A DNA stretch of 64,000 nucleotides from Cymodocea nodosa (taxonomy: Eukaryota; Streptophyta; Magnoliopsida; Alismatales; Cymodoceaceae): positions 7,276,501-7,340,500 of the forward strand of contig CM072342.1 in the NCBI GenBank assembly GCA_036874045.1. Direction: 5' to 3'. Positions within the stretch are counted from its first letter, which is position 1. Every line of letters begins with the position of its first letter. The translations under genes and the position numbers were made by a program. The notes under the pieces were generated by a model. It was given only the letters and a program-made list of their open reading frames with translations. It was not told where the DNA came from and made no database searches. Shown piece by piece: positions 27,254 through 61,300 of this stretch.

Positions 27254-27258
27254 ATTGT

Positions 27259-28272
27259 TGTAACTAAACATGATCGTTCAGTCAACACACTATGACACGA
27301 TTCTGAAACACTCACCTCTAAACTCACCAAAACTGGGAAGTGAAGAGAAAAAGGAAGAAAGAACACTAAAGACAAGGATTTACGTGGTTCAGCAACAACC
27401 TACGTCTACAGAGAGTTAAGGGTTCTACTATGAGCTTCGGCACAATCAACTGCAATGTTTTACAACATTATAAAGGTTTATATATTACCCCACTTAGGAT
27501 TAATAAATCTTAAATTACACTTAAGCCATTATAGTAGAGAGAGAATGCTTCAGAGAAGGAACTCTCAATTTCGAAGCCTTATCTTCTTATCTTTCCAAAA
27601 TTTGCAAAACTTCAGATAGTTACAGAGCTTAACTATTTGAAGAATAATCTTCTTTCTTCATTTGTCATAATGGGCGTTACTATAGCTAACTGTTTGGAGA
27701 GATTCAGTCTTTCGGATAGTTATAGACTTAACTATCTAAAAACCCATTTACGTCTCTCTTAGTTCATTTGGAAGGTTCTATCGTTAACTTTTCAAAAACT
27801 ACATGCCTTTCAGATAGTTATGGACTTAACTATTTGAAAACTCACTTAAGTGTCTTTTTAGTCACTTCGGAAGGTTGTAGTTGTAACCTTCCGAAAAACT
27901 CATGACTTTCGGATAATTACTACCTAACTATCCGAAGATCTACTTAAGTCACTATCATTTGGATACTTAGCTCCTTAACTATTCAAACATCCACTTAAGT
28001 GTCTAACTTTCAGATACTTAGCTTCATAACTGTCTAAACGTCTACTTAAGTGTCATTTAAGTCATTCTAGATGGTTACAGTTAATAACCCTCTGAAATCT
28101 CCTAACTTTCGAATAGTTAGCTCAAAGCCTTCCGACTAAAATGTTATTTCGGATACTTTGACCTGGTAACCTTCCGAAATCATAAATCTATTGGAGACTT
28201 ACTGCTAACAAGCTTCCGACTGAACCTGAACTTCTTGTGGTATACTCCTCACCTGTACTACTCGCCCTAACA
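27259..28272 (-). repeat. 5' LTR of element A with serial hairpins
   Basis: 1014 bp, TGTTAGGGCGAG to TTAGTTACA on the minus strand. A solo copy of the same LTR is at 37719-38734. Positions 27590-28200 hold a chain of short inverted repeats of the type GGATAGTTA/TAACTATCC and GGAAGGTT/AACCTTCC, separated by CACTTAAGTG. Confidence 0.93.
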
Positions 28273-29981
28273 GAAATACCATTTTGGAAAGAACCTTAAT
28301 AGACCTAGGTGCAAGTATAAATGTTATGCCTAGTGATATATTTGCATCATTAGGATTAGAGGGCTTAATCCCTACTAGGATTGTCATTCAATTAGCAGAT
28401 AGAAATATAAGATACCCTAGAGGAAAAATAGAAAATGTTCTAATTAAAGTAAAGAACTTCATATATCCTATTAATATTGTTAATTTGGATTCCCAACAAA
28501 TTAAGCATCAGGATCATGATACATCTTTAATTTTGGGAAGACCATTTCTAGCAACTTCAGGGGCTATTATAAACTATAAAAATGGAATGATGAAATTAGC
28601 ATATGATAACAAGGATACTCAATTAAATATTTTCAAACTAGAAAGGGATGAAGAGTTAGAAATGTCCTTACATACTATAGAATTTCTAGAGGATGAAGGA
28701 GATATGTTAGAAGATGTGATTCAAGAAGAATTAAATAGGCAATTAGATATTGAAAATTTAGAAGTGAAAATATAGATGGAGACTTAAACATAGAAGTAGA
28801 AGGAGGTCAAGAAGAGTTTAATATCGAAAATGAAAATGTTAAATTAAGAGTTCTAGCTTTTGATGGTCAACACTTAAATTTAAAAACATTTACCTCCTGA
28901 ATTGACCTATATATTTTTGAAAAAGGAACAGACTTGTCTAATCATTATTGCATCAGATTTAAAAGAAGATCAAATATCTAAATTAAAAGATGTAGTAAAA
29001 ACATATAAAGAAGTAATAGGATGGACTATGGTTGACATAAAAGGGTTAAGTTCTACTTTATGTCATCATCATATATATTTAGAAGAAAATGCTAAATCAT
29101 TTAGAATTCCTAAAAGGAGATTAAATCCAAACATTAAAGAAGTAGTTAAGAAGGAAATTGTGAAATGGTTAGATAAGGACATAATATATTCGATTTCTAA
29201 TAGCTCATAGGTTAGTCCAATCCATGTAGTTCCTAAGAAATCAGGGTTAACTATTATTAGGAATAAAAGTCAAAACTTGATACCTACTAGAATTTAATCA
29301 GGTAGGAGAGTGTGTATAAATTATAGAAAGCTGAATGTTGTGACTAGGAAAGATCATTTTCCCTTACATTTTATAAATAAGATATTAGAGAAATTAGTAA
29401 GGCAAGAATATTTTTATTTCCTAGACGGGTATTCAAGATATAACTAAGTCCCAGTAGTATTAGAGGATCAAGAGAAAACATAAAGCTTAGGTATGTCACC
29501 TTTTAAGATAGTATATGGGAAAAGTTATCATGTATCAACTGAAATTGAACATAAAGCTTATTGGGCATTAAAAACTCTAAACACTAATTTAAATCAAGTT
29601 GTTGAAAATAGAAAGATACAATTGATTGAGTTAGAAGAATTTAGGAATAAAGCTTATTCGAAAACTGTAATAGAAAAAGAAAAGATGAAGTTATGGTATG
29701 ACAAGAAAATTATTTCAAAAACTTTTGAAATAGGACAAGAAGTATATCTTTACATGACTAGACTTCATAACCATCTAGGAAAATTAAGATGTAGATGGGT
29801 AGGACCATACATAATTTGAAATATTTATTCCTATGGAGTTATTGAAATTGAAAATCCTAAAAATTAGAATATATTTAAAGTAAATGGGAAAAGATTTAGA
29901 CCTATTTTGAAATTTCCAAAAAGTTCCTTTGGTATTATAGAAGAAGTAAAAGTAGAGGACTACTCAAATCTTATTAAGTAA
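28273..29981 (+). pseudogene. Athila-type Ty3/gypsy pol remnant: protease, partial RT, integrase C-terminus
   Basis: The left end is cut by element A. The retropepsin has LIDLGASINVMPSD (28300) and ILGRPFLATSGAIIN. The RT N-terminus follows (28902-29440) with SPIHVVPKKSG, GRRVCINYRKLN and RKDHFPLHFI, up to YFYFLDGYSRYN. The catalytic YxDD, RNase H and the integrase core are missing. The frame passes at about 29480 straight into the integrase tail MSPFKIVYGKSYH, EHKAYWALK and RWVGPYII, ending at 29981. This motif set is specific to the Athila/Tat branch. Stops are mostly TAG/TAA at Gln positions (29208, 29295, 29445). A pair of compensating frameshifts lies at 28773-28900. Confidence 0.9.
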
Positions 29982-30647
29982 ATATATATATATATAAAGT
30001 CATTGGTTTTATCAAAGTAGGAAATTAAAAGAAAATTTTTGTTTTGGTCACACCGAAAGGATCCATTGGTCTGACTGAAGCTAAAAAAAAAGAGAAAATT
30101 TATATATTAAGTAAAAGTGTTGGTTTGATTGAAATATAGTATCAGTTTAACAATGTATTAGAAAAAAATTTTCGATTCAACTAAGGAAGAACAATAGTCT
30201 AACCAAAATTAAGAAAAGAGTAAAATCAAAAGTCAGTCAGACCAGAGATTTTTTAGTTTTGACTGCATAAAAATTATTATATTTACATTATTTTATTAGA
30301 TATAACTTTATGAGAGGTCCATTGAATTAAGCTTAACTTAACGAACTTACTTTGTTGAGTCTAGGATAAGTCCACAAACTTACTTTGTTGAGTTAACTAT
30401 AACTCAATGGAGTACTTAAGGTAACTCCACAAACTTAATTCATGGAGTTAACTGTAACTCCATGGAGTAGTATGTGTTAGTAGCAAAAGGTTATGCGGGA
30501 AATGACCTAATTACTAGTCAAAAACTTAAGATTTATTTAAATTAAAACTTAGGATTTGGGAGTATTATCTGTAGAAATCATTTAGTGCTTAGAACAAAAA
30601 AGATCAAGCCTATTCTGTTTCATTCTGTAACATCACGAAGGAGAAAG
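29982..30647 (+). other. Spacer between Athila-like pol and third ORF
   Basis: No gene. It has repeated GGTCTGACTG-like and CAGTCAGACC-like segments (30050-30255), then hairpin cores TTTGTTGAGTTAACTATAAC and ATGGAGTTAACTGTAACTCC (30340-30475). These are the same cores found in the LTRs. Confidence 0.6.
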
Positions 30648-32222: not shown

Positions 32223-33424
32223 AATGTATTATTTATCTACTTGTACTGAAATATATCAAAGTGTATGTAATTCAAAAATAATTTGTATATATATGTTGTT
32301 TGAAAATCAATATGTTTCTGAATTCGTATGATTATGAATGAATGATTTAAAGCTGTATTGAAATTATAATTTATATATTTGTTTGAAGCATTACAGGATT
32401 GTTTTAAAAGAATTTGAATGAAAAAGGCGCTTAAAGGCACAATTATTTAAGAAACACTTGAATATGTGTACAGACTGTAGAAATTCTATTTTTTGCATAA
32501 CAAGAAATGAATTGTAAGTTAAATATGCATATATGGTCAAATGTAAATTAAATTTAAATTGGAACACTACATTAAGTCTATGTATTTAATCATATTTAAG
32601 TTGAAAATATGTAGGAAAGGAGATATAGAAGTTAATATGAGAAGTAAGTTTTTAGGAAATTTTTTTAAGTGTTAACTCAATGAAGTTAGTTCATGGAGTT
32701 AACCTTAACTCCACAAAGTTAGTAGTAAAGTATACAGTCACTCCATTAAGTTAACTGTAACTCAACAAAGTTAATCCGTGGAGTTAGCAAATAGAAGCTT
32801 GAAGCTAGTCTATTGAGTTAGTTGTAACTCAACGAGGTTAGTTTGTTAAGTTAGAAACAACAACTAAGGTCACTCCGTTGAGTTAATTATAACTCAATGA
32901 AGTTAGTCCATGGAGTTAGCTGAATAGTTATTCTTTTCTCCACAAACAAGACTTCGTGGGTTTAGTGGTTACTGAAATTTAAAAATGAGAAGTGAAACAC
33001 ATATCCATAAAAACAAGAATCATACTACATGTTACAAGACACGTTCTTGTAATAAGATTCATTTGCCATATGGACGTGCATTATAAATACAAAACAGAAT
33101 GTTATTTACTAGTTACCATTAATTGAGAAGAGACAAGAGAACTTGTTGGGGGAATTGGAAGGAGAAGCAGCTGATTCAACTTCATCTGTCAATAACTATT
33201 TATTTAGAGTAAAGCTTTAGACTGGTATGTAATTAATTTTTTACAATTTACTATATGCTAAGAGTTTATGATCACATAGACTCATTCTCCTGGCACTAAA
33301 TGTTTAGTAAGAACACCTACATAGGATTATTCAATATAGACGGGTATTGAAAATTTTTTTTAAAATAAACGTTAACAAAATCCTTAGGGGTGTAGCTAAC
33401 ATTTCTTTAAAGGAGAATAAAGAC
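32223..33424 (+). other. Non-coding interval between third ORF and gag, rich in hairpin cores
   Basis: No gene. 32670-32930 holds at least six alternating GAGTTA/TAACTC repeats of the CGTTGAGTTA type. A TATA-like CATTATAAATAC at 33080-33091 suggests LTR or leader sequence. An LTR end and PBS should lie here if the following gag starts a second element, but none is recognisable. Confidence 0.5.
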
Positions 33425-34618
33425 ATGGCTGCTCCAATAGAAAAACTATTAGGGGAAATTCTATATCCTGAACTAGTTGATGAACCTTAATGTATTCGAC
33501 TACCAAATTTTGAAGGAGATAGGTTTGAACTGAAATCTAATTGTATTAGTTAATTACCACACTTTCGTGGATTAGAAAGGGAAGACGCCTATTATTTCCT
33601 TAGAGAATTTAATGAAGTTTGTCAAATGATGAAAATGTCGAACATGAGTATTGATGTTATTAAACTTAGATATATCCCTTTTGCTTTAAAAGACATAACT
33701 AATAGATGGTTATATATTCTTTCGCTTGATTCAATTTCTACATGGATTGAATTTTGCTTTATTTTTCTGGAAAAATATTACCTAATACATTAAACAATTA
33801 AGAAGAAAAAGGAAATATTAATGTGTAGCCAAAAACAGGGAGAATCATTTTGAAAATATTTTGAATGATTTAAAGATTTATTGACTCAATGTTCACATCA
33901 TACAATGAGTAAAGCACAATTAATAGGTATAATTTATGAAGGTATAGATGTTTCAACTAAATCTTTATTAGAATCTACTTGTTAGAATAGATTTTTGAAA
34001 TTGTGTAGTGAAGAAGCCTGGGCTTATTTAGAAAACTTTACAAAAAGAACTACTTAATGGAAAAACTCGACTGAAGTTATTACAGATAAGAAAATATTGC
34101 TAAGGGGAATGCATGAAATAGATTCGAGTACTATGCTTGAAATTAAATTAACTTAGTTAACAAAGAAAATAGAAGAGTTATCATTAAATTAAAAACTAGT
34201 AGAAATGAATGTAAATATTAATGATTTAGATATTATTTATGCTAGAAACTAGAAAAATAACTTTGGTAATTCTTATAACCCTAATTGGAGAAATCATTCG
34301 AATTTATCTTAGAGAAATAACAACTTTTAGGGAGTAGAAAATATAAATAATAGAAATGCAATTTATGAAGCATTAATTGAACAAGGATCTAAAATAGAGA
34401 AATTAGAAAAGATAATTCAACAATTAAACAATCGTTTAGATCATGTGTTTGGAAATGCTACCATTCAAAATCAGAACATGAATAGAAATATACCCCTTAG
34501 ACAGAAGGAATCAATAGAAGTTAGACCTATAGGAGGACTGCCAATTCAAGTAGTACTGAACCCTTTGAACAAAACTATTAATGAAATTGATATCTCCTAT
34601 GGGAGGGAAGTTGAATGA
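33425..34618 (+). pseudogene. Athila-type Ty3/gypsy Gag
   Basis: ATG at 33425 (MAAPIEKLLGEI). One frame of about 398 codons. The retrotransposon Gag domain is clear: IKLRYIPFALKDITNRWLYI, STWIEFCFIFLEKYY, then KQGESF and FKDLLTQCSHHTMSKAQLI. The Athila-specific NSYNPNWRNHSNLS is near 34270, where the following Trp is a TAG. About 12 internal stops (5 TAG, 5 TAA, 2 TGA) all fall where Gln or Trp is expected, and no indel is seen. Gag here lies downstream of a pol and third ORF, which is the wrong order for one element, so it starts a second element or marks a rearrangement. Confidence 0.9.
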
Positions 34619-36729: not shown

Positions 36730-38810
36730 TTGAACGTTATATTTAGAATTTTATATAGGATGCTACAATACTTTACTATTAATACAAATCTAGTATAGTA
36801 TCTTATGTTTTTACTGAATTTTATGAGTGTAACAGTTTTATGATTTTAAAGGGAAATCAGAATGCTTAATTGAAACTTAGAAATTATCTAAAGTCCTAAA
36901 AAAGTTGAAATGTTGATTTTTGGATTAAATAAAATGCATATGATCAAGGATACATTTAATTTGATTGATTAAACTTATAGAATGATTTATGTGTAAATCA
37001 TATTAAACTATAGAAAAAGTATGAGCTTATTGATATGGATTCATATTTTTCAATAGATTGTAGAAGTAGGATTATATGAGATTTGTGTTTTATTGCATAT
37101 GTATTAATGAAATACATATATATACTATGTTGAAAAGAAAAAAATGAGGATAAAGAGAAAAACTTTGAGAGTTTATTGAATTGTTTGATCATGAGCCTTT
37201 TGTACTTGAACATATAGGTATATAAAGATTGTTGACCTAAAAAAGGACTCTTTAAATCTGGCAACCTAAGATCTTGATTAGATTTGAGATTGTTGATTGA
37301 AAACTCGATACATAAGTACACTAGAAAGCTCTTGTATGATTCAAACTTTTCAAATTAACTTTTAAAGTAAATATATATATATACTGTTATGAAAAGATGA
37401 AAGTATTTTATTAAAAGTACAAATATCTTTTAATCAAGTATATTCTCTATTATTTATGACTATTGAAGTGTGAATCTAGATTAGACTTTTGAAGTTGTTT
37501 ATTTGAAATACAATGCATTATTCTTCTTATTTTAATCATATCAAGTTGAATTGTGTTTTGATTCTTATGCAATTGAAGTTTATTCTGGAAATCATATTGG
37601 AAAATTTAGGATAATAGATGTTTGAGAAAAATTGATAGTGTAACTACCACCTATTTGATGCTAGTATATTTTATATGTAGTTTACATATTTTTGAAATAT
37701 ATTTGCAGGTGGAGGAAATGTTGGATTGAAACTCGATCGTTCAGTCAACTCGCTATGGCACGATTCTAAAAAGCTCACCTCTAAACTCACTAAAACTAGA
37801 AGTGAAGAGAAAGAGGAAGAAAGAACAGTGAAGATACAGGATTTACGTGGTTCAACAATAGCCTACATCCATAGAGAGTTGAGGGTTCTACTATGAGCTT
37901 CGGCACAATCAACTACATGTTTTACAACATCATAAAGGTTTATATACTACCTAACCTAGGGTTAATAAACCTTTAATTACACTTGAGCCATTACAGTAGA
38001 GAGAAAATGCTTCAGAGAAGGAACTCTCAATTTCGAAGCCTTATCTTCCTATTTTTCTGAAACCTACAACACTTTAGATAGTTACAGAGCTTAACTATCC
38101 GAAGAATAATTTTCTTTCTTCATTTGTCATAACGGGCATTATTGTAGCTAACTGTTTGGAGAGATTTCATCTTTCAGATAGTTACAGACTTAACTGTCTA
38201 AAAACCCACTTATGTCTCTCTTAGTTCATTCGGAGGGTTCTATCGTTAACTTTTCGAAATCTGCATGCTTTTTGGATAGTTATGGACTTAACTATCCAAA
38301 AAATCACTTAAGTGTCTCTTTAGTCACTTCGGAAGGTTGTAATTGTAACCTTCCGAAAACCTCATGACTTTCGGATAGTTACTGCCTAACTATCCGAATA
38401 TCCACTTAAGTCACTGTCTTTTAGATACTTGGCTCCTTAACTATCTGAACATCTACTTAAGTGTCTAACTTTCGGATACTTAGCTTCATAACTATCTGAA
38501 CGTCCACTTAAGTGTCCTTTAAGTCATTTTGGATGGTTACAACCAGTAACCCTCCGAAATCTCCTGACTTTTGGATAGTTAGCTTAAAGCCTTCCGACTA
38601 AAACGTTATTTCAGATACTTCGACTTGGTAACCTTCCAAAAATATAAATCTACCTGAGACTTACTGCTAACAAGCTTCCGACTGAACTTGGACTTCTTGT
38701 GGCATACTCTACACTTGTACTACTTGCCCTAATAGGAAAAACAATGTTAAATTAGATTATTGAATTATAGATAATAACTTTATATTAATCTAATCTTAGT
38801 ATTCTGAAGA
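36730..38810 (+). repeat. SIRE-type post-pol spacer module inside Athila-like DNA
   Basis: 36730-37718 aligns by eye at roughly 80% with element C 14380-15345. Shared runs include TTGAGAGTTTATTG, TTTGATCATGAGCCTTT, GATTTGTGTTTTATTGCAT and GAAAGCTCTTGTATGATTCA. It ends in a PPT-like CAGGTGGAGGAAA, then continues weakly after a solo LTR (38735-38810). The flanks on both sides are Athila-like, so a copia spacer is embedded in a gypsy context. Confidence 0.8.
37719..38734 (-). mobile_element. Solo LTR of Tork-like family A, TSD GGAAA
   Basis: 1016 bp, homologous to A's 5' LTR (27259-28272). It is flanked by GGAAA at 37714-37718 and 38735-38739. The terminal TGTTAGGG/CCCTAACA end reads CCCTAATA here. 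It holds about ten consecutive short hairpins (38080-38650), including TCGGATAGTTA/TAACTATCCGA at 38371-38397 (11-bp perfect stem) and TTCGGAAGGTT/AACCTTCCGAA at 38328-38357. Confidence 0.95.
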
Positions 38811-38927
38811 TGCAAAATAAAGAAATATTTTTCATAAGGAATACATATTTATGAAGAAAAGAAATAGTTCTAGCACTTTAGAAAGACCTATTAACTAGAT
38901 CAAATTAGTTTGCTAAGAGACTAGCAA

Positions 38928-38946
38928 AAGTTAAGTATGGGGGAAG
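38928..38946 (+). promoter_or_regulatory. Polypurine tract before Athila-like LTR
   Basis: GACTAGCAAAAGTTAAGTATGGGGGAAG ends directly at the LTR start TGTTTAG; the G-rich part is 38936-38946. The same GACTAGCAAAG...TATGGGGGTG motif precedes F's 3' LTR (61313-61339). This marks 38947 as the start of a 3' LTR. Confidence 0.8.
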
Positions 38947-40196
38947 TGTTTAGAATGAAAAAGTGCATAATATTAATGGTTAAATAATGGTTAATTGTAT
39001 AATATTTAGCTTATCACATGAGAATTAAGCCATTATGTTATAATTGCATGATTGTATGCTTTAATTAAAGAATGTGTATAATTTTAGCGAATTAAAGTTA
39101 ATGAAGCATATTTTTGAACTATTGGTGAGTTATAGGCTTTTTAATTCCTTAAGTATCTGAAATGTCTGTTATTTCGGAGAGTTTTATTTTATGTATCGAA
39201 TAGTTTGATTTTGAATGCTTAAAGAGTATTTTATTATTATTAAGTCATGTGACTTAAGTTGTATTTTAGAAAGTTAGTTAGTAACTATCCAAATGTGTTT
39301 AAGCATTGGATATTTAGGTTTGCAAGTATCCAAAATACCTTTTTATCATAAAAACTACTGAAGACATGTGTCGTGACTTGAAAACATGACTTAAGTTATC
39401 TTTCGAAAGGTTAGAGGCAAACTATCCAAAATGCATATAAGTTTTGGATAGTTATAGTTCATAACTATCTGAAAAGTCTTTTTACCATTGTAAAGTTAGT
39501 ATTATGCACATGTGAATTTAAATGTTTTATTATGTCACGTGAGTTGCATATGTTTTATATTAAGTCCATTGAGTTAAGCTTTACTCAACGAAGGAAGTCC
39601 ATTGAGTTAACTATTAAGTCCACAAAGTAAGTCTATTGAGTTACACTAACTCTATGGACCAGTTATTTTCTAATATTTAAATATGAAGTAGTTACAATAA
39701 ATAGGAAATTTGAAGGAAAACCACGGTTGCATGCATCACATAGGAATTAACTCGTGGAATGAAGAAGAAATCACCATCGTTGATACGAATGAAGGAAATC
39801 CAACCGATCATTAGGTAGAAGAAATTACTATTGAAAGAAATATAAAAGAAGAAGAGAAAGACGAAGAAAAGTGTGTGTGGAAAGAGGTGGAGAACTATGC
39901 TAACTGTAGGAAGCATTGGAAGTTCCTTGAAGCTCCACAACACTACTATAATCACCAACCATCAAAGGTCTATGAGGATACTTTCCAGTTGTTGGGTCGA
40001 TTTCGAGCTAAACACAGTGACTGACAACCATTGTGAGGAATGATTGCATCACAGGAAGGAAAGTCATTTTCACCAAGCATCGACTCATCTTTCAAGAGAT
40101 CGTAAAGCTTCTAGCCTTAGTTTCGAGTCGATACCAATATATTGAAGATGAGATCAATTTACAAGTCTCAGTTCATGATTCTATAGGGAGAGGAGG
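38947..40196 (+). repeat. Athila-like LTR, first part
   Basis: Starts TGTTTAGAATGAAAAAGTGC after a PPT, so it is a 3' LTR. It is interrupted at 40196 by a solo LTR of its own family and resumes at 42103. Other copies start at 40197, 53611 and 54220. It includes hairpins such as TTGGATAGTTATAGTTCATA/ACTATCTG near 39440-39470. Small ORFs inside are not conserved as protein. Confidence 0.88.
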
Positions 40197-40553
40197 TGTT
40201 TAGAATGAAAAAGTGCATATTATTAATGGTTAAATGATGGTTAATTGCATAATATTTAGCTTATCATATGAGAATTAAGCCATTATGTTATAATTGCATT
40301 GTTATATGCTTTAATTGAAGAATTCGCTTAATTTTGAGGAATTAATGTCAATTTAGTACATTTCTGAACTGTCTGGTAAAGTGACTTAAGTGGATTTTCA
40401 GTGAGTTAGCTGTAACTATCTGAAATGCATCTGAGCATCGGATAGTTAGACTTGTAACTCTCCGAAATGGGTATTTTATTATTAAACTGCTGCTGACACG
40501 TGTCGAGATCTGGTAGATTTACTTAAGTTATATATCGGTGAGTTAGCTGTAAC

Positions 40554-40680
40554 TATCCGAAATGCATCTGAGCATCGGATAGTTAAGTTTATAACTATCC
40601 GAAATGCATCTGAGCATCAGATAGTTAAGTTTATAAGTATCCGAAATGCACCTGAGCATCGAATAGTTAAATTTATGCTC
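40554..40680 (+). repeat. 42-bp tandem array, each unit a CGGATAGTTA hairpin
   Basis: Three direct units of 42 bp begin at 40554, 40596 and 40638. Each unit links TATCCGAAATGCATCTGAGC to ATCGGATAGTTAAGTTTATA. A diverged unit lies upstream at about 40416-40465. Each boundary forms a hairpin of CGGATAGTTA with TAACTATCCG. Confidence 0.9.
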
Positions 40681-41732
40681 GTGTTTTATAGTTAAATCAA
40701 CGAAGAAAGTCCGTTGAGTTATCTGTAACTCCACAGACTATTTATTTTCTAATATGCCACTATAGCGGTTGCAGAAACAGGATAGTTGGAAGAAAAACCA
40801 CGATTGCATGTATTACACAAGGAGAAGAAATCATCGCCGTTGATATGAATGAAGGAAATCCAACCGATCATTCAAGTAGTAATTACTACTGAAGAAATAT
40901 AAAAGAAAAGAAGAAAAAGAAATCCAGTGTGTGATCGATGGACGGGTAGTGTATACAGAGGAGGAGCACCGAGCTTTCTGCAGATAGTATCAGTGATTCT
41001 CCGAAGTATCATACCAACCATCGTTACCATCACCATATCCACCATAATCACGAACCATCGAAGGTCTGTGAGAATACTTTCTTGATGTCGGGTCGATTCC
41101 GAGCCAAACATAGTGCCTGACAACCACTGTGAGGAGTGATCACGTCGTGGGAAGGGAAGCCATTTTCACCAAGCGCCGACTCATATTTCAGGAGATCGTA
41201 AAGCTTTTAGCCTTGGCTTCTGGTTGATGCTTGTATGCTGAAGAGAAGATTATCTTGCAATTTTGGACTCGCAATTCTATAGGGAGAGGAGACAGAATTG
41301 TAAGTGGTTTAATTTTCAGTGGTGTAATCACGTTGCAAGTAGTGTCAGAAGTATTTACTGTCGAGTGAGATTACTTTACATTTCACCTTTCGCCCCATTC
41401 CATGTTCATATTAAAACAAAAATACCAAAAACAATTTATCTATGTTTGTAGGTTGTATTTGAGTGTTGTATTGTGATTAATGTTATCTTCATCAGTGTTG
41501 TGATTGTTTTATGTTTGTTTTAGTTTTACATTTTACTGAAATTGGTTTGTTCAAAAGACTTAAAGATTTTAATGGTTACTATTTGAATTATCTAAATGTT
41601 AGTATTGCTTAATGATAAATCCAATGTTTACTAACATTAAAGAACTTAATTGATGTTATTTACAATCTGTGGAATTGCCCAATGGTTGGCCGAATTCCTC
41701 TGTAAATAGTAGTATTAAAAAGAAAAGACAAG

Positions 41733-41824
41733 CTCGTGGAGTAAACTTAAGTCCACGAGGTTAGTCTGTTGAGTTAGCCATAACTCAACGAACTTTATCC
41801 GTTGAGTTAACTGTAATTCAACGG
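41733..41824 (+). promoter_or_regulatory. Triple hairpin near LTR 3' end
   Basis: Three consecutive hairpins: CTCGTGGA/TCCACGAG (41733-41759), GTTGAGTTA/TAACTCAAC (41768-41789) and CCGTTGAGTTA/TAATTCAACGG (41799-41824, one mismatch). The same trio stands at 42583-42674 and 61549-61642 in two other LTR copies, about 70-90 bp before the GTGGGATCGAC end motif. Confidence 0.75.
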
Positions 41825-42097
41825 AGAGCTTATTGAATATATAAATTTGATTGTTAACAAACGGACAGTTCTGAACTTTTCAGCAATTCCTTGTGGGATC
41901 GACTTATACTTGCACACTAATACAATAGACACTATGCACTTGCAGTTAAAGTACAAATTGGAATTAATATCTAAATTGCATTAAAGGTTGTTTGTTTACT
42001 TCTAAAAGAAGGAATAGGCATAAAGATAAATTAACTAAGTAAAAACAAAAGTAACAAATCCAAGTTTTTCTAGTGTAGTGTTGGGAAAACGCAAACA

Positions 42098-42898
42098 GGA
42101 GGTATGACTATAAGTGATTAAGTTTTCAGTGGTGTAATTGTGTCGCATGTAGTGATGGAAGTTTTTATTGTCAATTGACAATTTCTACATTTCACCTTTT
42201 GTTCATATTCAGGAATATATCAAAACAAAAATGTCAAAAACAAACTAATTATCTATGTTTATAGTTAGCATTTATGTGTGTATTGTTTGTTTAGTATAGT
42301 GATTAATGTTATTATTGTCAATATTGTGAATGTTTTATGTTTAGTTGATTTAGAAAATAGAAAATAGTTTTATTGATTACTGAAATTGATTCGTACAGAA
42401 TACCCAAAAATCTTAGTAGTTATTATTCAAAATATCTGAATGTTAGTGTTGATTAATGATAAATACTAGATAAATTAACATTAAAAGCTTAATTGATGTT
42501 ATTTACATTCTATGGAACCGCCCAATGGTTGGCCGAATTCCTATGTAAATAGTAATAGTTAATTGGAAGTTACAAGTTAGGCTCGTGAAGTTAGTTTAAG
42601 TCTACAAGGATAGTTCGTCAAATTAACTATAACTTAATGAATTAAGTTCGTTGAGTTAGCAGTAACTCAATGGAGTGCTTAATTGAACACATATAAAACT
42701 CTAGTTATAAAAATCAAAATAGTACATAATTCTTACTCAATCTTTGTGGGATTGACCTATACTTGCACATAAATACAATAGACATTGTGCATTTGCAGTT
42801 AAAAATAAATTAAACTTAATACTTAATTTGTAAAAATCATTTATTTACTTCTAAAAGAAATTATTAATATACATATATAACAAAACAAATGCCAAACA
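42098..42898 (+). repeat. Athila-like LTR, second part
   Basis: Continuation of 38947-40196 after the solo LTR; the first five bases are the repeated target site. It has the triple hairpin, then CTTTGTGGGATTGACCTATA at 42742-42761. The likely end is GCCAAACA at 42898, matching GCAAACA of the solo copy. Confidence 0.8.
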
Positions 42899-48586: not shown

Positions 48587-49853
48587 TCAACTCATTTTGA
48601 AGATCTTTAAGTAAATTTTCTTTATTTGCTTTACAAATAAAATTATGTAGTAGAAAACATGAGTTTCAAATGGAAATGACATATAATTGCATAGAATTGC
48701 AAAATGATGTTTCACAATACCAAATGTATGCTCGATCACTATCTTTAATTGTGAATGCCTATAATTTAAATTCTCTATGGCATTTGTTGGAAGTTGAGAC
48801 ATATCATAATTTGATAAATGGTATCTAACACATCTAAATGGGCAGATAAATTTTGGTCTATTTGGAAAACTAGTATTTACTAAGTAGAATTTATTTACAT
48901 TAAAAAAAATATTAATTTAAAGATAAAATAAATGACTAGCTAAACTAATATAAATACTTACCAACTGGAACTTGAAGTCCATTAGGTTATACTTACCAAC
49001 TGGAATTTGAAGTCCATTAAGTTGAGAGATTGCATCTTAAAGAATTCTAGCATCAGTAGTAGACCCTTCCCATCTAGCAAGAATATAAATAAACTCCATA
49101 TCAAAATTATAAGTCGCCAATACATTTTGTGATAATTCACCCTTTTTGTTCCTAAAGGATGTTGTTTCTTCTCCATAAATGGTTACTTTTATATGTGTAC
49201 CATCTATTGTACCAATAGAATCTTATTAAGAAATACAAGAGAAACATTATATAAACTAATAATATCAATGTTGTAAGAAACAACAACAAATGGTAAGAGT
49301 ATGTTACCTTGAAGTATAGGAAGACATTTTTATCATTACAAATTCATCTATGTGTTGATGGTGAATGTTTAACTAGAAGTTTTCCACTTAAGCCAATTGT
49401 AGCAATTAATATCTCATTGAATATATGATTGACAATGTAACTTGAACAATCAAATCTTTTTCTTGTTACTCCATATCTTTGATTTTGACCAATTATTACC
49501 AAAAATACAACTAATTTCTCCTCCATAGTGATGTTATTACCATCATGTACTAGTCCTTTCTTTCTCAATAAATTACAAAATTGTAGGAATATAGATTGAC
49601 TCATATGATATATTTTCCTACAATTATATGCCTAATTTGGTAAATTTGGATCAAATAATTTTTTGACATAATCTTGTCCTTCCTTACTATATATGTGATC
49701 TTTAACTATTGAGCTAATATTAAAATGACATGCAATTGTACTAAAAAAATTCCATGTTAACATCATTATCTTTCTCTTTTTCCTTGCTTTTTCATCCTCT
49801 TGTTTTAATAGTAGCCTCAACTTGTGGGTCTTTTTCTTTGAATTCATTCTCAA
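48587..49853 (-). pseudogene. PIF/Harbinger DDE transposase
   Basis: From right to left: a basic N-terminal leader (49632-49853), the N-terminal domain with SQSIFLQFCNLLRKKGLV and QNQRYGVTRKRFDCSS (49344-49604), then after a probable 90-bp intron (GTAACA at about 49307 to ATAAG near 49220) the DDE_4 nuclease. Its three acidic positions are kept: Asp in GTIDGTHIKV (near 49205), Asp in GSTTDARIL (near 49050) and Glu in VIEHTFGIVKHHF (near 48720). NYRHSQLK precedes the last. Stops: TGA near 49342, TAA near 49035. It would cut and paste the element at TTA sites. Confidence 0.88.
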
Positions 49854-53610: not shown

Positions 53611-53869
53611 TATTTAGAATGAAAAAGTGTATAATATTAATGGTTAATTGCATAATATTTAGCTTATCATGTGATAATTAAGCCATTATGTTAGAATTAT
53701 ATGATTACACGCCTTAATTACAGAATATGCATAATTTCAAGGAATTAACATTAATTAAATATCATTTCTGAAAGATTGAAAACTTGGTTTATGCGTGGTT
53801 TTATAGTATTAAGCATGATATGTTTTATTTGCACATATTTATATCATGTATAGTGTATAGTAACAACTT
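53611..53869 (+). repeat. Athila-like LTR fragment H
   Basis: Starts TATTTAGAATGAAAAAGTG (TGTTTAG in other copies) and matches 54220-54400, then skips to match 54683-54770: an internal deletion of about 280 bp. It is cut at 53869 by the next LTR. Confidence 0.8.
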
Positions 53870-54219: not shown

Positions 54220-56098
54220 TGTTTAGAATGAAAAAGTGCATAATATTAATGGTTAAATAATGGTTAATTGCATAATATTTAGCTTATCATATGAGAATTA
54301 AGTCATTATGTTATAATTGCACTATTATATGCTTTAATGAAAAAATCTACATAATTTCTAGGAATTAGCGTTAATTAAGTACATTTTTGCACTACCGGTG
54401 AGTTATAGGCTTTGTAATTTTTAAGTATCCAAATTGTCTGTTACTTCGTAGAGTTACATTTTATGTACCAAACAGTTATGTTTTGAATGCTTAAAGAATA
54501 CTTTATTATTTTGCTAGAGTACACGTGTTGTAACCTTAATACATGACTTAAGTGAATTTTTGGTAAGTTAGATGCTAACTATCTGAAATGCATCTAAGCA
54601 TTGTATAGTTAGGTTTGCAAGTATCCGAAATATCTTTTTATCATAAAACTTACTGAGGACACGTCTCGTGATCTGAAAACCTGATTTAAGTGTGGTTTTA
54701 TAGTATTAAGCATGATCTATTTTATTTGCATATATTTATATCATGTACAAGTGTACAGTAATAACTCATTGAGTTAGTGTTCTTTTTGTTGAAAGATCGT
54801 GTGCCAACTCATTGAGTTACAAGTTTAAAGGTTTAAAAAGGTCATGTGAGAACTCGTTGAGTTAGCGAATAAAAACTATAAGTTGTATATTTGAACTTGT
54901 TAGTTAGAATTATGCACGTGTTGAAATTAAATGCTTTATTATGTCACATGAGCTACACATGTTTAACTCGTTTAGTTAGTATAACTATATGTGTTGAGTT
55001 ACTTGAATATACACTAAGGTAATGCATAGTGTTATTGCTATAAGCTTATAAGTTATTTCTTTATTGTACGTGTTTTATAGTTAAGTCAACGAAGTAAGTC
55101 CATTGAGTTACACGAACTCCACGGACCACTTATTTTCTAACATGCTATTGTAGTAGTTACAGAAATAAGAAATTTGCAGGAAAACCATGATTGCATGTAT
55201 GACGTAGGAATTCACTCGTGGAATGAAGAAGAAATCGCCATCATAGATACGAATGAAGGAAATCTAATCGATCATTTAAGCAAAAGTAGTTACTACTAAA
55301 AGAAATATAAAAGAAGAGGAGAAAAACCATGTGAAAGGAGTGTGAAGGTGGAGGACCGCACTAACTGTAGGAAGCGTCAAAAGTTCCCTGAAGCTCTATA
55401 ACACCACCAAAATCACCAACCATCGGAGGCCTGTGAGGATACTTTCTGGATGTCAGGTTGATTTTGAGCCAAACACAGTGACTAACAATCACTACGAGGA
55501 GTGATCATGTCGCAGGAAGGGAAGTCATTTTCACCAAGCACTGACTCATATCTTAGGAGATTATAAAGCTTCTAGCCTTGGTTTTGGGTTAATGCTAGTA
55601 TATTGAAGAGGAGATCAACTTACAAGTCTTGGTTCACAATTCTATAGGGAGAGGAGGCAAGATTGTAAGTGATTAAGTTTTCAGTGGTGTAATCACGTCG
55701 CATGTAGTGATAGAAGTTTTTACTATCGATAGAGATTTTTTACATTTCACCTTTCGCTCATCTTCAAGAACATATCAAAACAAAAATACCAAAAACAACT
55801 AATTATCTGTGTTTACATTTATTATTAATGTGTTGTATTATTTGTTTTGTATCATGATTAATGTTATCATTATCAGTATTATAAATGTTTTAGGTTTGTT
55901 TGATTTAGAAAATAGAAAATAGTTTTATTGTTTATTGAAATTGATTCGTCTAGAATACTTAAAAAATTCTTAATGGTTACTGTTTGAAATATCTGAATGT
56001 TAGTGTTGCTTAATGACAAATTTCAAATTAACTAACATTAAAAGCTTAATGGATGTTATTTACATTTTGTGGACCACCCAATAAATAGTCAAATTCCT
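54220..56098 (+). repeat. 5' LTR of element G, first part
   Basis: Starts TGTTTAGAATG. Same layout as 38947-40196: CGTAGAGTT and GTATCCGAAATAT hairpin remnants, GTTGAGTTA modules (54775-55110), then the AATTCTATAGGGAGAGGAGG landmark near 55637. It is cut at 56098 by element F, which left TTCCT on both sides. Confidence 0.9.
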
Positions 56099-58278
56099 TG
56101 TAAAGTATCAATTTGTGCATTTTATATATGTTAATTCATGCATATTAAGGATTATAAGTCATCATTATATATGTTCTTATGAAAGATTACATGAAAATCA
56201 TATTTTAGAACTATGCATGTTTTATTGGTTAAATAGTCAATAATGCACAAATTTATCCTTTATTAAATTAACACCTAGTCAATTAGCCCATGTGTAAATA
56301 TAAGTAATTTATATATTGATTTCATGCATATCTTAAAATAATTATCATTAAGATATGAAATCAAATAATCCTCAATTGAGCAAACATTATATTATGCACA
56401 TTTCATTTTTACTTTATAATCTAGTAGGAATTTATGTGTAATGTACATATGCATTTAATGTTATCTTTTGAGTTGTTGATAATAGGTGAGGACATGGACC
56501 TTTGGATTAAATCATGGAAAATCAACAACTCATGGTCATCCAATTCAAACTCCAAATCAGTCCATCAATCAATCAATCAATGATTAAAACTTGCCTAAAT
56601 TAGAAGGTCTCAATTGGAAGGAGTTGAAATATTTCCATAGATGGATGATAATGGAAAGCAAAAGAGGATGGTTGGCCAAAGGAAAGATGATCTCCTTTCT
56701 CCTCCACGTAAAAGGCCAAGCAAAGAACTCCAAAAATTTCGTCCTCCCTTCTTCCAGCCAAGGTTGTGGACGAGCTCTCCTCCAAGGTTGGTGAGCTAGG
56801 TGTCTTCCCCCTCATACTAGAAGACCTCCTTCTCTCCACTCCAAGCCGACATATGGAAGGACCTCCACAGGTGAAATCAGTGGTATTAGAGGCACGTGTG
56901 CAGCATTGGAAGAGCTTGGGACGTGATCTTCAAGATGAGGTAATAGGAAGCATCAACATTGAGAGGAAAGCCAACAACTTCATACATCTTGGAAGTGGTT
57001 GAAGACGTGCAACCACCACTTCAAAGCAACCCTAGAGACCTCTTTTGGATGTGCTACAGGTGGTGACAGCCCTGTGGTGTGTTGGTGTGACGTGATTCAA
57101 GGTTGAAAGGGAGCTCGTGCTTGAAGAAAGGTGGAGAACTCAAAGGTATATTGGAGAAGAGAGATCCTCATACTTGAATATCAAATTTTCATATCATATG
57201 TGTATGAGTATTTAGGTTTTTAATTCATTTGTTATGTGCACATGTAGTATGTTATTTAAATGATGATTTTGTTTAAAAATATTAGTTATTTTACAATATA
57301 TTTCGTGGAATATAGTTGCTTCATGTGAATATGTGAATGTTGTGCATAAAACTAACTCTTAACCCTTGTGAATGCATGTATATCCTATTTGCTGTAAATT
57401 CCTGTATGAGTCTTGTTTTGTTATATGTTGTACAACTTGATTTCTCTGAGTTATATGTCATGTTATAGCTTGTTTTGTAAGTAATTCAAGTCTAAAATAC
57501 GTATGTAGAGTTTTTGGAATTTTTTAGAATGCATTTATTCGGTTTTTTGATTATTCTTTTGAAGGTAGCATCTGCTTTGTTTTACTGGTCGAGTGACAGA
57601 AATTATGCTCGACTCCTTCATGTTTCCTTGCTTTTGTACGTTCCGAAATGTTTTCCTATAAATTTTCCTGATTAGAGAAATGAGTTATCTTTCAAGGCGC
57701 AGTAATTTCGTGGTGTTTCATGAAGATTTGATTGAGTTATGATATTTACACCAACAACGTGTTTTTGGAAAGTTTTCAGAATCGTTTGGCGCACTGTTTT
57801 TATATTTGACTTTGGTAGCAACCTAGAGTGAATTAGTCCTAGAAATCACTGCCATTTTAAAGATAACTTGATGACTTTTCCAACCAATATTTTCTCTGGA
57901 TTTTTCAATGTCCAGGTTGGAAGGAAGAAGAGTTAGAATTTGGACTAATTTCTGTGATTCCAGAAATGTGAACTTAAGATTTTCTTGAGTTTTCTAGTTA
58001 TTAGCTCTAGGAATTAACAAGTTTTATGCTACTTTTAAAATATTTATTGTATTTTTGTTAATTGTAACTTGATTACATATAATTAGAGTTTTAATTGTGG
58101 ATTTAATAGAGTGGATGTTTTATCAAACAATTATTTTAATAAAATTATTTAAGACAAACTCCTTGTGGATTCGACCCGTACTTGTACATGCTTATTACAA
58201 TGGGCACCATGTGCTTGCGGTTATAAATGTAAAATTTATACTTTTGCCATTAATTTAACAACGCATAAAAGTATTACA
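56099..58278 (+). repeat. 5' LTR of element F
   Basis: TGTAAAGTATC... to GTATTACA at 58278, seven bases before the PBS. The U5-like end CTTGTGGATTCGACCCGTAC is at 58162-58181. ORFs at 56591-57002 overlap on both strands and show no known domain. A shorter alternative, 56099-56446 ending TGTACA, matches the 3' copy's length of homology. Confidence 0.75.
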
Positions 58279-58284
58279 AGTTTT

Positions 58285-58302
58285 TGGCACCGTTGCCGGG
58301 GA
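58285..58302 (+). promoter_or_regulatory. Primer-binding site of element F
   Basis: TGGCACCGTTGCCGGGGA, one base from the canonical Athila/Tat PBS TGGCGCCGTTGCCGGGGA (tRNA-Asp type). Confidence 0.92.
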
Positions 58303-61300
58303 GTTTTAGTGCTTTAAAATGATTTATTAGATGATTTGCAATATTTAATATCCTTTATATTGTTCTAGTTTTGTTTGTTTTCTTATTTTAGTTGAGTTAT
58401 TATTTTTCTTTGTTTGTTTACAAGGAAATGGATACATGGATTGGCCGTTCTATGTGTTCAATTCTTTGTTATCTGATTTGCTTGTTACATGTTTAATTCA
58501 AGTTTATGATTTGGTGACAAGTAGCTTAAGGGAGTAATGATAATCTTTGTGTACAAATTATTAAGACAAAATCTATCTGTCTGTAAATTTAAATTTTTTG
58601 ATGTGCACGAGATTAGAACTCATTTTTATGATATTTTTCCTGAAATACTCGATTTCTAAGATTTCTTTTGAGTACTTATGCATAAAATTCTGATCAGTAT
58701 GTTAAAAGATAAAAATCTTAGAAAATAGGGATGTTTTACAGAATTCTGGATAGGTTTCTGCTAATGAATTTTGAAAATATGATATTATGAAAGTATTTAA
58801 AATTTAATTCACTAATTTTTTTCAGAAACTAGATGAAATTATATTTCCAACGAGTATTTATATGCTTCATTTGGATTTATATAAATTTATGTGTGAATTT
58901 TTAAAGTTAGCATATCAGATTTAACCAATATTATGAAAATCAGATAGTTAAGGTCATAACTATCTGTTCCTCATGAAAAAAATCGGATAGTTACACCATA
59001 ACTATCCGATTGTACAGTAAAATCGGATAGTTATTTTTGCCAATATTTTTTTCAGATGGTTATTTTCTGATGCAGAACAGTTTTATCTGAACTCTTATAT
59101 TTGAAATTGCAGTTACATGTTTGAATAAAACGTATTTTTGAAATTTTTCCATGAAACTACACGAGTTTACCTTTCCAACAAGGTATTATATGTTGTATTT
59201 GGAATTATATACATTTCTAGAGAATTTTTCTAAGATGATGTGTTCTGCAGATTACGAGTTTGAGTTGTTTTAGGTTTCACACGATTTTGACAATACTTCA
59301 ATTTTGGCAATTTTTGTCTGTGATTTTTCTTAGAAACTAGAAGTAATTATATTTTAGAAGAATATTTAATTGTGAATTTCTAAGTTGTATGAATTTCTGT
59401 AGAAAATCTTGAAGTTATAGTAGCACAGTTTAATTTCTGAAATCTTGTGTGTGCTTGATATATTTAAAACTTTAGATGAAGTTGATGTTTTATTGATAAA
59501 ATACATTGTATTTTATGCTGATCATAGTGGCATGAATGTAGGATCTTGTAATTTAATGAGTTAAGGAAAATGAGGTCTTAAGTGGAATTAAAAATGATTG
59601 CTTTTCAATTCTTTTATTATATTGCAAATTGCTAGTATTACTAAAGACCTAAGTACTTGAATTAATTATCTTTACTCATTTAATCAGTTTTGCATGTCAT
59701 TATGGATAACTAGTAATAATAATAATAATAATAATAATATAATAAAAAATATAATTATTAAAAAAATAATAATAAATTATTATAAAAAAAAATTTAATTT
59801 TGTTGTTTGTGTGCTTTATATATACTTTCTTTTTTGTTTTGATATGTTTGTTAGTTTTGTAGTTTATTAGTTTTCTTCATCAAGTAAGGTACGCACTCTT
59901 AACCTTATTTCTTTATGATGCATTTGAATGATACATGTGTTGAATATTATTTCTTAAGCATACTACTCAATCTCCATTGTATGTTTTAGAAATAATACAA
60001 TTTAAATTTACACAAGTGCATATAGATTGCATGCTAGGTATGGGGGCGTAATCTTTCCTTACTTGTCATAGTTTGTTTTTTTTGTTTTTGTCGTCTTCTG
60101 CTTTTTATCTTGTTGCCTAAATTCTTTCTTTTACATTGGGGACAATGCAAAATTTAAGTATGGGGGGGAGGCATTTGATGATAGTTTTTTTTTTCGATTT
60201 TGTGCTTTTTTTCTTGTTTATTTTGTTTTATAAATGCTCATAGGCCCTAATGGATAGAGTTCTTTTAGGTATAATTGAGACCTAAAAGTGAATCCTTTAG
60301 GAAAGAAACCTTAAACCTTAAGGGGAGGAGAAGAATAAAATTCAAAACCATCCATATTTTTGAGCTTATATGTAGTATTGCACTTACATGAGGCCTTGAC
60401 TAGGAAGGAACCACTCCTCTTGAAGGGAAACTTAGGTAAAAAACATAGGAATATACCTTGGGGTTGTCTTATGAGAATGGTAAAATAAAAGGGCTAAGGT
60501 AAAATTGCTCGTTCCCACACCATGATGTGGGAGGCACTCTTAAGGGTAAAGGGCTAGGGAGAGAAAAAAAAAAGAAAAAAAAAGAAAGAAAAAAAAGAAA
60601 AAAGAAAAAGAGAGATTGATTACTTGTTCTTACAAAAGCTACTAAGTAACTGGTTAACTTTCCCCTAAGCAAGAGATTGTGGTCACGTAAAAAGGTGTTG
60701 GAGTAGGAGGTAATCTAAAAAAGAAAAAAAAAAGAGAAAAAGAAAGAAAAAAAAGAGAGTCAAAATAAAGGGACAATGGACTCAAGGATAAACCTTTAGG
60801 ATTACTTAGGTAACTTGGAGGGAGTTGAGTAGGTTATTTCTTAGTCTTAGCCATTTTCACATATATTTATTTATATAGTACTCTACATTCTTAGGATGGA
60901 AATTGAATGATTATTTGAATCCAATCTAGAAAGGTGAGAGGGTGATTGAATAAAGGTGAAGCTAATAAATAGGTCAAGACTACTTAAGAGCAACTTTATC
61001 CATGTTTAGGAAACTAAGAGCATATTTTTGTTGTTTTTTGTCTTTCAGTTGTATTGTTTTATATTTTGTTTTGGATTTTGTGGGTATATCTGCTGAAAAC
61101 CCTCTAGAGACACAACTCCACCACTAGGGTGACCTAGGGGTTTAAAGGCTTGCTGCACATGCTAAGTGTAGTCGTGATCCCTACGAAAGTGGCTTAGGTT
61201 AGTTTTATTTTTGTTATTTGTTTATTAGTTGTTTTTGTTTTCTATTTTTTAATAAGTGCATTTTCATATGGGCTTTATGTTATCATTGTTTAGTTTTAGT

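What the first reader, a model, noticed from the sequence alone, without database searches (positions are those of the whole stretch)
27590..59040. Same short hairpin, CGGATAGTTA/TAACTATCCG, in LTRs of unrelated retroelement families
Seen directly: perfect or near-perfect stems of this core occur in Tork-like copia LTRs (27590-28200; 38371-38397), in Athila-like gypsy LTRs (40554-40680; 39440-39470) and in the body of the Athila/Tat-like element F (58941-58966; 58981-59011, 13-bp stem). Related half-sites occur in SIRE-type LTRs (7770-7800; 22838-22910). These families do not share LTR sequence by descent, so the shared motif suggests convergence on one host factor, exchange of regulatory DNA between families, or selection for RNA structure. 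TAACTA resembles plant MYB site cores, but this is inference.
Basis: partly seen in the sequence, partly recalled or inferred. Interest (0 to 1): 0.87.

Follow-up and report, generated by a model that had tools for sequence, protein, structure and literature searches.

The report
Shared palindromic switch across plant retrotransposons
Several families of plant jumping genes, from two superfamilies that are only distantly related, carry the same short two-armed DNA module, mostly in their promoters; it looks like a shared control switch that was partly swapped between families rather than an RNA hairpin.

Summary
CGGATAGTTA (<=1 mismatch) occurs 39 times in the window against 1.95 expected; 37 of 39 lie in LTRs or element F. 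Genome-wide (374.6 Mb) there are 48,858 exact copies against 463 for the reversed word. The real unit is wider: a rigid half-site TTCGG-N3-GTTA, paired head-to-head (11,265 palindromes 3-9 bp apart; 0 reversed, 0 with N4). One arm is often followed exactly 6 bp later by ACTTAAGT (11,082; 0 reversed). Copia (Tork-like, SIRE-type) and Athila-like gypsy LTRs carry it.

Exchange of promoter blocks is the best reading there; Tork shares only the module. Genome-wide the arms' middle bases are not kept complementary (2 of 54 triples, 9.5 expected), against RNA-stem selection and for protein binding, although the window's own palindromes do match better than shuffled. Closest known: the palindromic motifs of Sirevirus LTRs, reported as Sirevirus-specific. 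The binding factor is unidentified.

The parts
7032..8703 (+). 5' LTR of SIRE-type copia element E2 (about 7032-20291), nested in the LTR of a second SIRE-type element E1
   Evidence: 95% direct-repeat pair 7031-8719 / 18621-20291; PBS 8705, PPT 18610-18621; copia pol ORFs at 11152-12626
7230..7614 (+). U3 block S, shared in direct orientation with Athila-like LTRs (54686-55072)
   Evidence: 72%/401 columns, E 6e-60; part of the block in 18 of 28 Athila-type LTR starts examined, up to 90%/106 bp (two further rows show it but one belongs to a neighbouring SIRE LTR and one overlaps A3)
7655..7851 (+). U3 cassette with degenerate palindromes and ACTTAAGT, shared in inverted orientation with Athila-like LTRs; absent from SIRE LTRs E1, L016 and L023
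   Evidence: motif-free part 7715-7769 still 81%/57 bp; 6 elements with it, five of them picked for the motif, and 3 without
19243..19439 (+). same cassette in the 3' LTR of E2
22729..23936 (.). probable solo copia (SIRE-like) LTR inside the Tork-like element, with half-sites at 22891 and 23031
   Evidence: other Tork-like copies run straight across this point; repeat copies in L017, L069, L070; family label weak
27256..28272 (-). 5' LTR of a Tork-like copia element (minus strand) with a tandem array of palindrome + N6 + ACTTAAGT modules
37719..38734 (-). solo LTR of the same Tork-like family, target-site duplication GGAAA, inside Athila-like sequence; contains the perfect palindrome 38372-38396
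38947..40196 (+). Athila-like LTR copy A1 after a PPT (38933-38946); modules at 39252 and 39389 read on the minus strand
40197..41706 (+). Athila-like LTR copy A2 (the stretch shared with A3) with a 42-bp palindromic tandem array 40550-40676
54222..56098 (+). Athila-like LTR copy A3, interrupted by element F; one module (54546) plus SIRE-like block S
56099..61512 (+). element F: LTR element with short LTRs (about 175-350 bp), PPT at 61328, target-site duplication TTCCT; its four ORFs of 75 aa or more match no Pfam family; palindromes at 58941-59033 are internal
   Evidence: related copies in L027 with palindromes

Best explanation
This is a shared promoter (U3) enhancer module of LTR retrotransposons. 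Its unit is a rigid bipartite half-site TTCGG-N3-GTTA, usually paired head-to-head over 4-7 bp; in one common form one arm is followed exactly 6 bp later by a second, self-complementary site ACTTAAGT. I infer that a dimeric DNA-binding protein of the host reads the two half-sites, with a partner at ACTTAAGT, and that this drives transcription from the promoter downstream. Several families answer to the same factor. Between SIRE-type copia and Athila-like gypsy elements the module travelled as part of larger U3 blocks exchanged by recombination, in one case in inverted orientation, which an enhancer tolerates. In Tork-like and Athila-like LTRs it also multiplied in tandem. Shown: the grammar, the copy numbers, the position upstream of TATA-like strings in the window's LTRs, the presence in copia and gypsy-type LTRs, the SIRE-Athila homology and the presence/absence of the cassette. 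Inferred: protein binding, enhancer function, recombination as the route, and exchange rather than convergence for Tork.
For: Rigid grammar: 401 N3 half-sites against 3 for all other gap lengths 0 to 7 together in 308,240 bases held, which were partly chosen for the motif; 16 against 1 in the window and 103 against 1 in the half-site sample L034-L073; genome-wide 11,265 N3 palindromes against 0 reversed and 0 with N4. ACTTAAGT: with the CGGATAGTTA arm, 1,807 at gap 6 against 173 at gaps 7-30 together (gaps 0-5 not counted); with any N3, 11,082 against 0 reversed. In the window 15 pairs (<=3 mismatches) sit at gap 6: SIRE 2, Tork-like 8, Athila-like 5. Upstream of TATA-like strings in the three LTR families. 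Superfamilies: RVT_1, RNase H and integrase in gypsy order in L026, RVT_1 and RNase H in L025, RVT_2 in L017, L019 and L023. Homology. Middle bases not kept complementary genome-wide. In a half-site sample not chosen for palindromes, 61 of 85 have an inverted partner within 2-9 bp against 1 of 85 in a control band. 12 of 12 composite sites picked for the SIRE-type N6 letters lie in SIRE E2-type LTRs in one orientation.
Against: No binding, expression or methylation data; no known factor was matched. Spacing between half-sites varies (4-7 bp), loose for a rigid dimer. After masking all motif-like 10-mers the Tork-like LTRs show no convincing homology to the other families, so for Tork descent is not shown. 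Palindromes in F lie inside the element and have no ACTTAAGT near. The window's own palindromes match arm to arm more than shuffled (0 of 500; still 2 of 500 with wobble counted and the TTGAGTTA-like class removed), and so do the Tork-like loci (1 of 500). Over all 471 palindromes the third and sixth arm positions match in excess of every shuffle: the third because a separate T-type class pairs with itself (48 T/T), the sixth only slightly (0.72 against 0.68). The window holds only one palindrome of the strict TTCGG-N3-GTTA form.
Confidence: 0.6

Rival explanations
1. RNA or single-strand DNA structure is what is selected: transcribed palindromes form hairpins that feed small-RNA silencing or serve the element's RNA, as proposed for maize Sireviruses.
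For: Predicted RNA folds with z -6.8, -6.5, -4.9, -4.1 and -1.6 for five stretches. Spacers of 4-7 nt suit hairpin loops. Arms of the window's palindromes and of the Tork-like loci match more than shuffled. Passages of two papers say small RNAs pile up on palindrome-rich parts of maize Sirevirus LTRs.
Against: The three middle bases of the stem are not kept complementary genome-wide: 2 of 54 listed palindromes have identical triples against 9.5 by shuffling, and with G-U pairs 2 against 12.8; over 471 palindromes matching equals the shuffle mean (1.571 against 1.565, sd 0.032), and in the 136 with CGG in both arms it is below it. The N3 gap is rigid though its letters are free, which a stem does not need.
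Confidence: 0.1
2. Convergence: each family gained the module on its own because one host factor with strict grammar rewards it.
For: Tork shares the module but no flanking sequence after masking. Grammar is rigid genome-wide.
Against: SIRE and Athila share motif-free sequence next to the module and a further 385-bp block. The same 6-bp gap in all three families and similar N6 letters.
Confidence: 0.15
3. Neutral spread: palindromic tandem repeats multiply by replication slippage and template switching, with no regulatory role.
For: Arrays are tandem in Tork-like and Athila-like LTRs and half-site density differs strongly between LTR copies.
Against: Slippage does not explain a 3-bp gap with free letters kept across 11,265 palindromes or the same grammar in two superfamilies.
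Confidence: 0.08
4. The sites bind a protein encoded by one of the mobile elements (an anti-silencing factor like the VANC proteins of Arabidopsis VANDAL transposons, recalled) and other families parasitise it.
For: In the sample of 40 half-site stretches 38 match repeat sequence held here.
Against: No candidate gene was sought; sharing by several families would be unusual.
Confidence: 0.05

Closest known systems
Palindromic repeated motifs (RM) of Sirevirus LTRs, Bousios et al. 2010 (PMC2829016; section 9 and passages seen)
   Same: High-copy palindromic boxes with CGG...CCG outer letters, in the LTR upstream of the TATA box; the Osr9 consensus TTTTCGGACWTRTCCGAAAA resembles the outer part of the motif here.
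   Different: That paper calls the RM Sirevirus-specific and absent from classic retrotransposons. Here the same motif also sits in Tork-like copia and Athila-like gypsy LTRs and in an LTR element without recognised genes, has an inner GTTA/TAAC pair at a fixed N3, and is often coupled to ACTTAAGT at a fixed 6 bp.
Palindrome-rich cis-region of maize Sireviruses as small-RNA hotspot, Bousios et al. 2016 (not held; known through passages of PMC10760457 and PMC5311732)
   Same: Palindromes in the LTR regulatory region able to fold into hairpins; PMC10760457 reports the maize palindrome also in Helitrons, so sharing between element classes has a precedent.
   Different: Different sequence and different element classes; here, genome-wide, the arms do not behave as a conserved stem. 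Small RNAs were not testable.
Template switching and recombination between retrotransposon copies in plants (PMC1950507 and PMC5668417, abstracts seen)
   Same: A known route by which LTR sequence is reshuffled during reverse transcription.
   Different: The Onsen abstract concerns recombination within one family and the Triticeae abstract the fusion of two parent elements; here promoter blocks are shared between copia and gypsy superfamilies, one of them inverted.

Membership tests
Sirevirus palindromic repeated motif (RM) | palindromic, dyad-symmetric box in many copies | tested here: met
   11,265 palindromes genome-wide, 0 reversed control; 22 looser pairs in the window against 0.03 expected
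Sirevirus palindromic repeated motif (RM) | CGG-CCG core signature | tested here: met
   half-site TTCGG-N3-GTTA, partner TAAC-N3-CCGAA
Sirevirus palindromic repeated motif (RM) | located in the LTR upstream of the TATA box | tested here: met
   upstream of TATA-like strings in Tork-like, Athila-like and SIRE-type LTRs of the window (the SIRE LTR has a further TATA-like string before the modules); not for element F
Sirevirus palindromic repeated motif (RM) | restricted to Sireviruses | tested here: not met
   also in Tork-like copia and Athila-like gypsy LTRs
Sirevirus palindromic repeated motif (RM) | boxes form a CpG island | not tested
   no CpG-island call was made
hairpin-RNA / small-RNA source | transcript can fold into stable hairpins | tested here: met
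   four of five stretches with z below -4, one at -1.6
hairpin-RNA / small-RNA source | base pairing maintained by compensatory change | tested here: not met
   genome-wide list and pooled set; the window and the Tork-like loci alone do show an excess; copies are related, so this is descriptive
hairpin-RNA / small-RNA source | small RNAs map to the palindromes | not testable with these tools
   no expression data
MYB-type binding site | bound by an R2R3- or 1R-MYB protein | not testable with these tools
exchange of U3 blocks between LTR families | homology beyond the motif between families | tested here: met
   SIRE-Athila:
exchange of U3 blocks between LTR families | homology beyond the motif for Tork-like LTRs | tested here: not met
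   after masking only one 32-bp match at E 0.004

The most novel reading that the evidence does not exclude
An enhancer cassette circulates between copia and gypsy retrotransposons of one plant genome by exchange of U3 blocks, so that many LTR families there are wired to the same host transcription factor through a module with fixed grammar (TTCGG-N3-GTTA pair, 6 bp, ACTTAAGT).
Probability: 0.45. Interest if true: 0.78.

Novelty: new variant of a known kind. Interest (0 to 1): 0.66.

Why it matters
If true, transcriptional control of retrotransposons would be a property shared and traded between superfamilies, not one that each family evolves alone. A single host factor could then wake or silence much of a genome's mobile DNA at once, and its 11,000 palindromic sites could titrate that factor or bring nearby genes under it. 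The grammar is sharp enough to test directly with a reporter or a DNA pull-down.

Tried and rejected
RNA-stem selection: rejected as the main cause, though the window and the Tork-like loci alone show matching arms. One recent insertion carrying all copies: rejected (five flank clusters). Viral or prokaryotic origin: GGATAGTTA palindromes in viral contigs gave 9 stretches, one site each, which by my rough estimate is about what chance gives (the contigs were not studied further); the composite gave 0 in viral contigs, and a variant of it 0 in prokaryote genome contigs. Chance from low complexity: rejected by shuffles and reversed controls. Nested insertion of a fragment as the source of the SIRE cassette: I saw no target-site duplication at its borders in the alignment, but the borders lie in tandem repeats, so this is not excluded.

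Papers: ten searches answered. No title or abstract start in the listings reports one palindromic module shared by copia and gypsy LTRs; others (15 of 25; 15 of 27) listed only part of their hits. From their titles none of the 15 papers listed for the literal 10-mers concerns LTR elements. The library holds only open-licence PMC papers, so this is weak evidence of absence.

Not answered: genome counts for CGGATAGTTA pairs 10-38 bp apart, TTCGG-N3-GTTA pairs 10-16 bp apart, TAACTCACCGA-N6-ACTTAAGT by itself, and TTGAGTTA palindromes (server busy each time).

Limits of sampling: fetched genome stretches all come from contig C1, because places are listed from there. L014-L033 were chosen around exact palindromes; L074-L085 were chosen for the SIRE-type N6 letters. 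L034-L073 are 40 stretches around the first 74 of 100 places listed, less five places left out (4,189,306; 4,985,124; 4,985,166; 4,985,305; 5,226,920); the list shows few minus-strand places. Copies are related by descent, so shuffle tests are descriptive. The window's own Athila-like ORFs gave one weak protease match and no retrotransposon match; gypsy rests on L025 and L026, where the protease and integrase matches of L026 are below Pfam's cut-offs. Only in L025 do a palindrome-bearing LTR and the RT lie on one strand within about 3 kb; the ORF before that RT has no Pfam match, and in L026 LTR and genes are on opposite strands.


Full report
What was checked. CGGATAGTTA with at most one mismatch occurs 39 times in the 64-kb window against a shuffled mean of 1.95. 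Head-to-head pairs 3-9 bp apart (up to 2 mismatches per arm) number 22 against a mean of 0.03 in 60 Markov simulations. Of the 39 hits, 37 lie in LTRs or in element F; the other two lie in a probable solo LTR at 22729-23936.

The surroundings. The window is a nest of retrotransposons. A SIRE-type copia element E2 (about 7032-20291, plus strand; PBS 8705, PPT 18610) sits inside the LTR of a second one, E1. A Tork-like copia element on the minus strand has its 5' LTR at 27256-28272, and a solo LTR of the same family (37719-38734, target-site duplication GGAAA) sits in Athila-like sequence that runs to a PPT and LTR A1 (38947-40196). Two more Athila-like LTR copies follow, A2 (from 40197) and A3 (54222-56098); A3 is interrupted by element F (56099-61512, target-site duplication TTCCT, short LTRs). 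The four ORFs of at least 75 aa in F match no Pfam family. Copia is supported by Pfam matches in the window. Gypsy is supported in related copies: L025 has RVT_1 and RNase H, and L026 has protease, RVT_1, RNase H and integrase in that order, the protease and integrase matches being below Pfam's cut-offs. In L025 a palindrome-bearing LTR and the RT lie on one strand within about 3 kb; in L026 they are on opposite strands. The window's own Athila-like ORFs gave one weak protease match and no retrotransposon match. Tork, SIRE and Athila are labels only; no tree was made.

Genome-wide counts. The window lies in a 374.6-Mb assembly of 28 contigs. Exact CGGATAGTTA: 24,249 + 24,609 against 212 + 251 for the reversed word. 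Palindromes with exact 10-bp arms 3-9 bp apart: 1,098 against 0. The tool warns that counts of repeats are lower bounds.

What the unit really is. I took 40 stretches around half-sites that had not been chosen for being palindromic. In them 61 of 85 distinct half-sites have an inverted partner (<=3 mismatches) 2-9 bp away, against 1 of 85 in a control band of equal width, and the partner reads TAAC, then variable letters, then CCGAA. So the half-site is bipartite: TTCGG-N3-GTTA. In 308,240 bases held, partly chosen for the motif, there are 401 such half-sites with N3 and 3 in all with N0-N2 or N4-N7; 69 of 69 N3 palindromes with 3-9 bp between the arms have 4-7 bp. In the window it is 16 against 1, in L034-L073 103 against 1. 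Genome-wide there are 11,265 palindromes of this form, 0 reversed and 0 with N4. The window itself holds only one palindrome of the strict form; its others are degenerate.

A second fixed part. In the window ACTTAAGT follows TAACTATCCGA (<=3 mismatches) at exactly 6 bp in 15 cases: 2 in SIRE, 8 in Tork-like and 5 in Athila-like LTRs. Genome-wide TAACTATCCGA-N6-ACTTAAGT occurs 1,807 times, while gaps 7 to 30 together give 173; gaps 0-5 were not counted. With N3 free, TAAC-N3-CCGA-N6-ACTTAAGT occurs 11,082 times against 0 reversed. These patterns require one arm, not the whole palindrome. Read in the sense of the element, ACTTAAGT precedes the palindrome in the window's Tork-like and Athila-like LTRs and follows it in SIRE. 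All 12 composite sites that I picked for their SIRE-type N6 letters (L074-L085) lie in SIRE E2-type LTRs in that orientation. In the three LTR families of the window the modules lie upstream of TATA-like strings; the SIRE LTR has one further such string before them. This fits a U3 enhancer.

Who carries it. In 20 loci taken around exact palindromes, 35 palindromes with exact 9-bp arms fall into five flank clusters: Tork-like LTR 21, a copia-associated cluster 7, Athila-like LTR 3, a cluster in L016/L032 2, and F family 2 (copia genes in L017, L019, L021). Of the 40 half-site stretches, the best match is an Athila-like LTR in 25 (2 more weakly), Athila-like internal sequence in 3, SIRE E2 LTR in 3, and the solo-LTR family of 22729-23936 in 2; 5 match no window family, of which 3 match loci L029 or L032 and 2 match nothing held. 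No Tork-like LTR was among these 40, so family shares differ between the two samples.

Shared by descent or not. SIRE and Athila LTRs share more than the motif: 7230-7614 aligns with 54686-55072 in direct orientation (72% over 401 columns, E 6e-60), and 7671-7850 aligns with 39253-39431 in inverted orientation (71% over 182, E 1e-23). With every 10-mer within three mismatches of the motifs masked, 7715-7769 still matches 39388-39333 (81% over 57 bp, E 1e-7). SIRE LTRs come in two forms: with the cassette of about 185-195 bp (E2, and L042, L074, L079, L080, L085, which were picked for the motif) and with TTGAGTTA repeats in its place (E1, L016, L023). Part of block S of the SIRE LTR is found in 18 of 28 Athila-type LTR starts, up to 90% over 106 bp (two further rows show it, but in L023 it belongs to a neighbouring SIRE LTR and the row at 53612 runs into A3; some stretches are too short to show it). 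For Tork the match to Athila (74% over 91 bp, E 6e-13) consists of the module and disappears on masking, so descent is not shown there.

Protein site or RNA stem. The stretches can fold (z -6.8, -6.5, -4.9, -4.1, -1.6), but a conserved stem should keep its middle bases complementary. Over 471 palindromes from the window and L014-L073 the three middle positions match as often as shuffled arms (1.571 against 1.565, sd 0.032). Of the 54 plus-strand palindromes listed, 2 have identical triples against 9.5 by shuffling, or 2 fully paired against 12.8 when G-U pairs count. In the copia-associated loci and the half-site sample the arms match less than shuffled, as they do in the 136 palindromes with CGG in both arms. 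Against my reading: the Tork-like loci show a slight excess of matching (1.72 against 1.54; 1 of 500 shuffles reached it), the window a clear one (1.82 against 1.39; 0 of 500), which stays when the T-type class is removed and wobble counted (2 of 500). Over all 471 the third arm position matches in excess (0.817 against 0.646), explained by a separate class with T there that pairs with itself (48 T/T), and the sixth slightly (0.72 against 0.68), unexplained. The copies are related, so these are not strict probabilities. A fixed gap with free letters fits recognition by a protein better than a stem.

Comparison with what is known. Bousios et al. 2010 (PMC2829016; section 9 and passages seen) described palindromic repeated motifs with a CGG-CCG signature in Sirevirus LTRs upstream of a TATA box and called them absent from classic retrotransposons. 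The outer part of the motif here is of that kind. New are the inner GTTA at a fixed N3, the coupled ACTTAAGT, and the presence in gypsy and Tork-like LTRs. Their 2016 paper is not held; passages in PMC10760457 and PMC5311732 say that maize Sirevirus palindromes attract small RNAs, and PMC10760457 that the same palindrome is found in Helitrons, a precedent for sharing across element classes. Template switching (PMC1950507, abstract) and recombination within a family (PMC5668417, abstract) are known routes of reshuffling.

Verdict. The most likely account is a U3 enhancer module read by a dimeric host factor, spread between SIRE-type copia and Athila-like gypsy by exchange of U3 blocks and multiplied in tandem in some families. 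The factor, its function, and the history for Tork remain open.

Noticed in passing
32687-32903, 39562-39648, 40714-40740, 41765-41825, 42651-42670, 61580-61640, and SIRE E1 LTR 20722-20831: A second palindrome class, TTGAGTTA facing TAACTCAA, occurs in both Athila-like and SIRE-type sequence; in the DNA held its spacing is 4 bp in 22 pairs, 5 bp in 1 and 37 bp in 7.
   Followed up: partly
56099-61512: Element F is an LTR element with very short LTRs and no ORF matching Pfam, yet related sequence recurs in L016 and L027; in L027 the palindromes again lie inside its body.
   Followed up: partly
38947-42896: Two Athila-like LTR copies (A1, A2) lie head to tail without internal sequence between them, and part of A2 (41287-42050) is repeated at 42097-42896.
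   Followed up: no
48587-48916 (minus strand): An ORF matches DDE_Tnp_4 (E 2e-7), probably a remnant of a DNA transposon among the retroelements.
   Followed up: no
L036, L052, L059: Half-sites inside Athila-like internal sequence, in a context without a palindromic partner.
   Followed up: no
G000:C1 1-2293809: Only 3 of the 100 half-sites listed fall in the first 2.29 Mb of the contig, which may mean that the module is sparse at that end; the list shows few minus-strand places, so this is a hint only.
   Followed up: no
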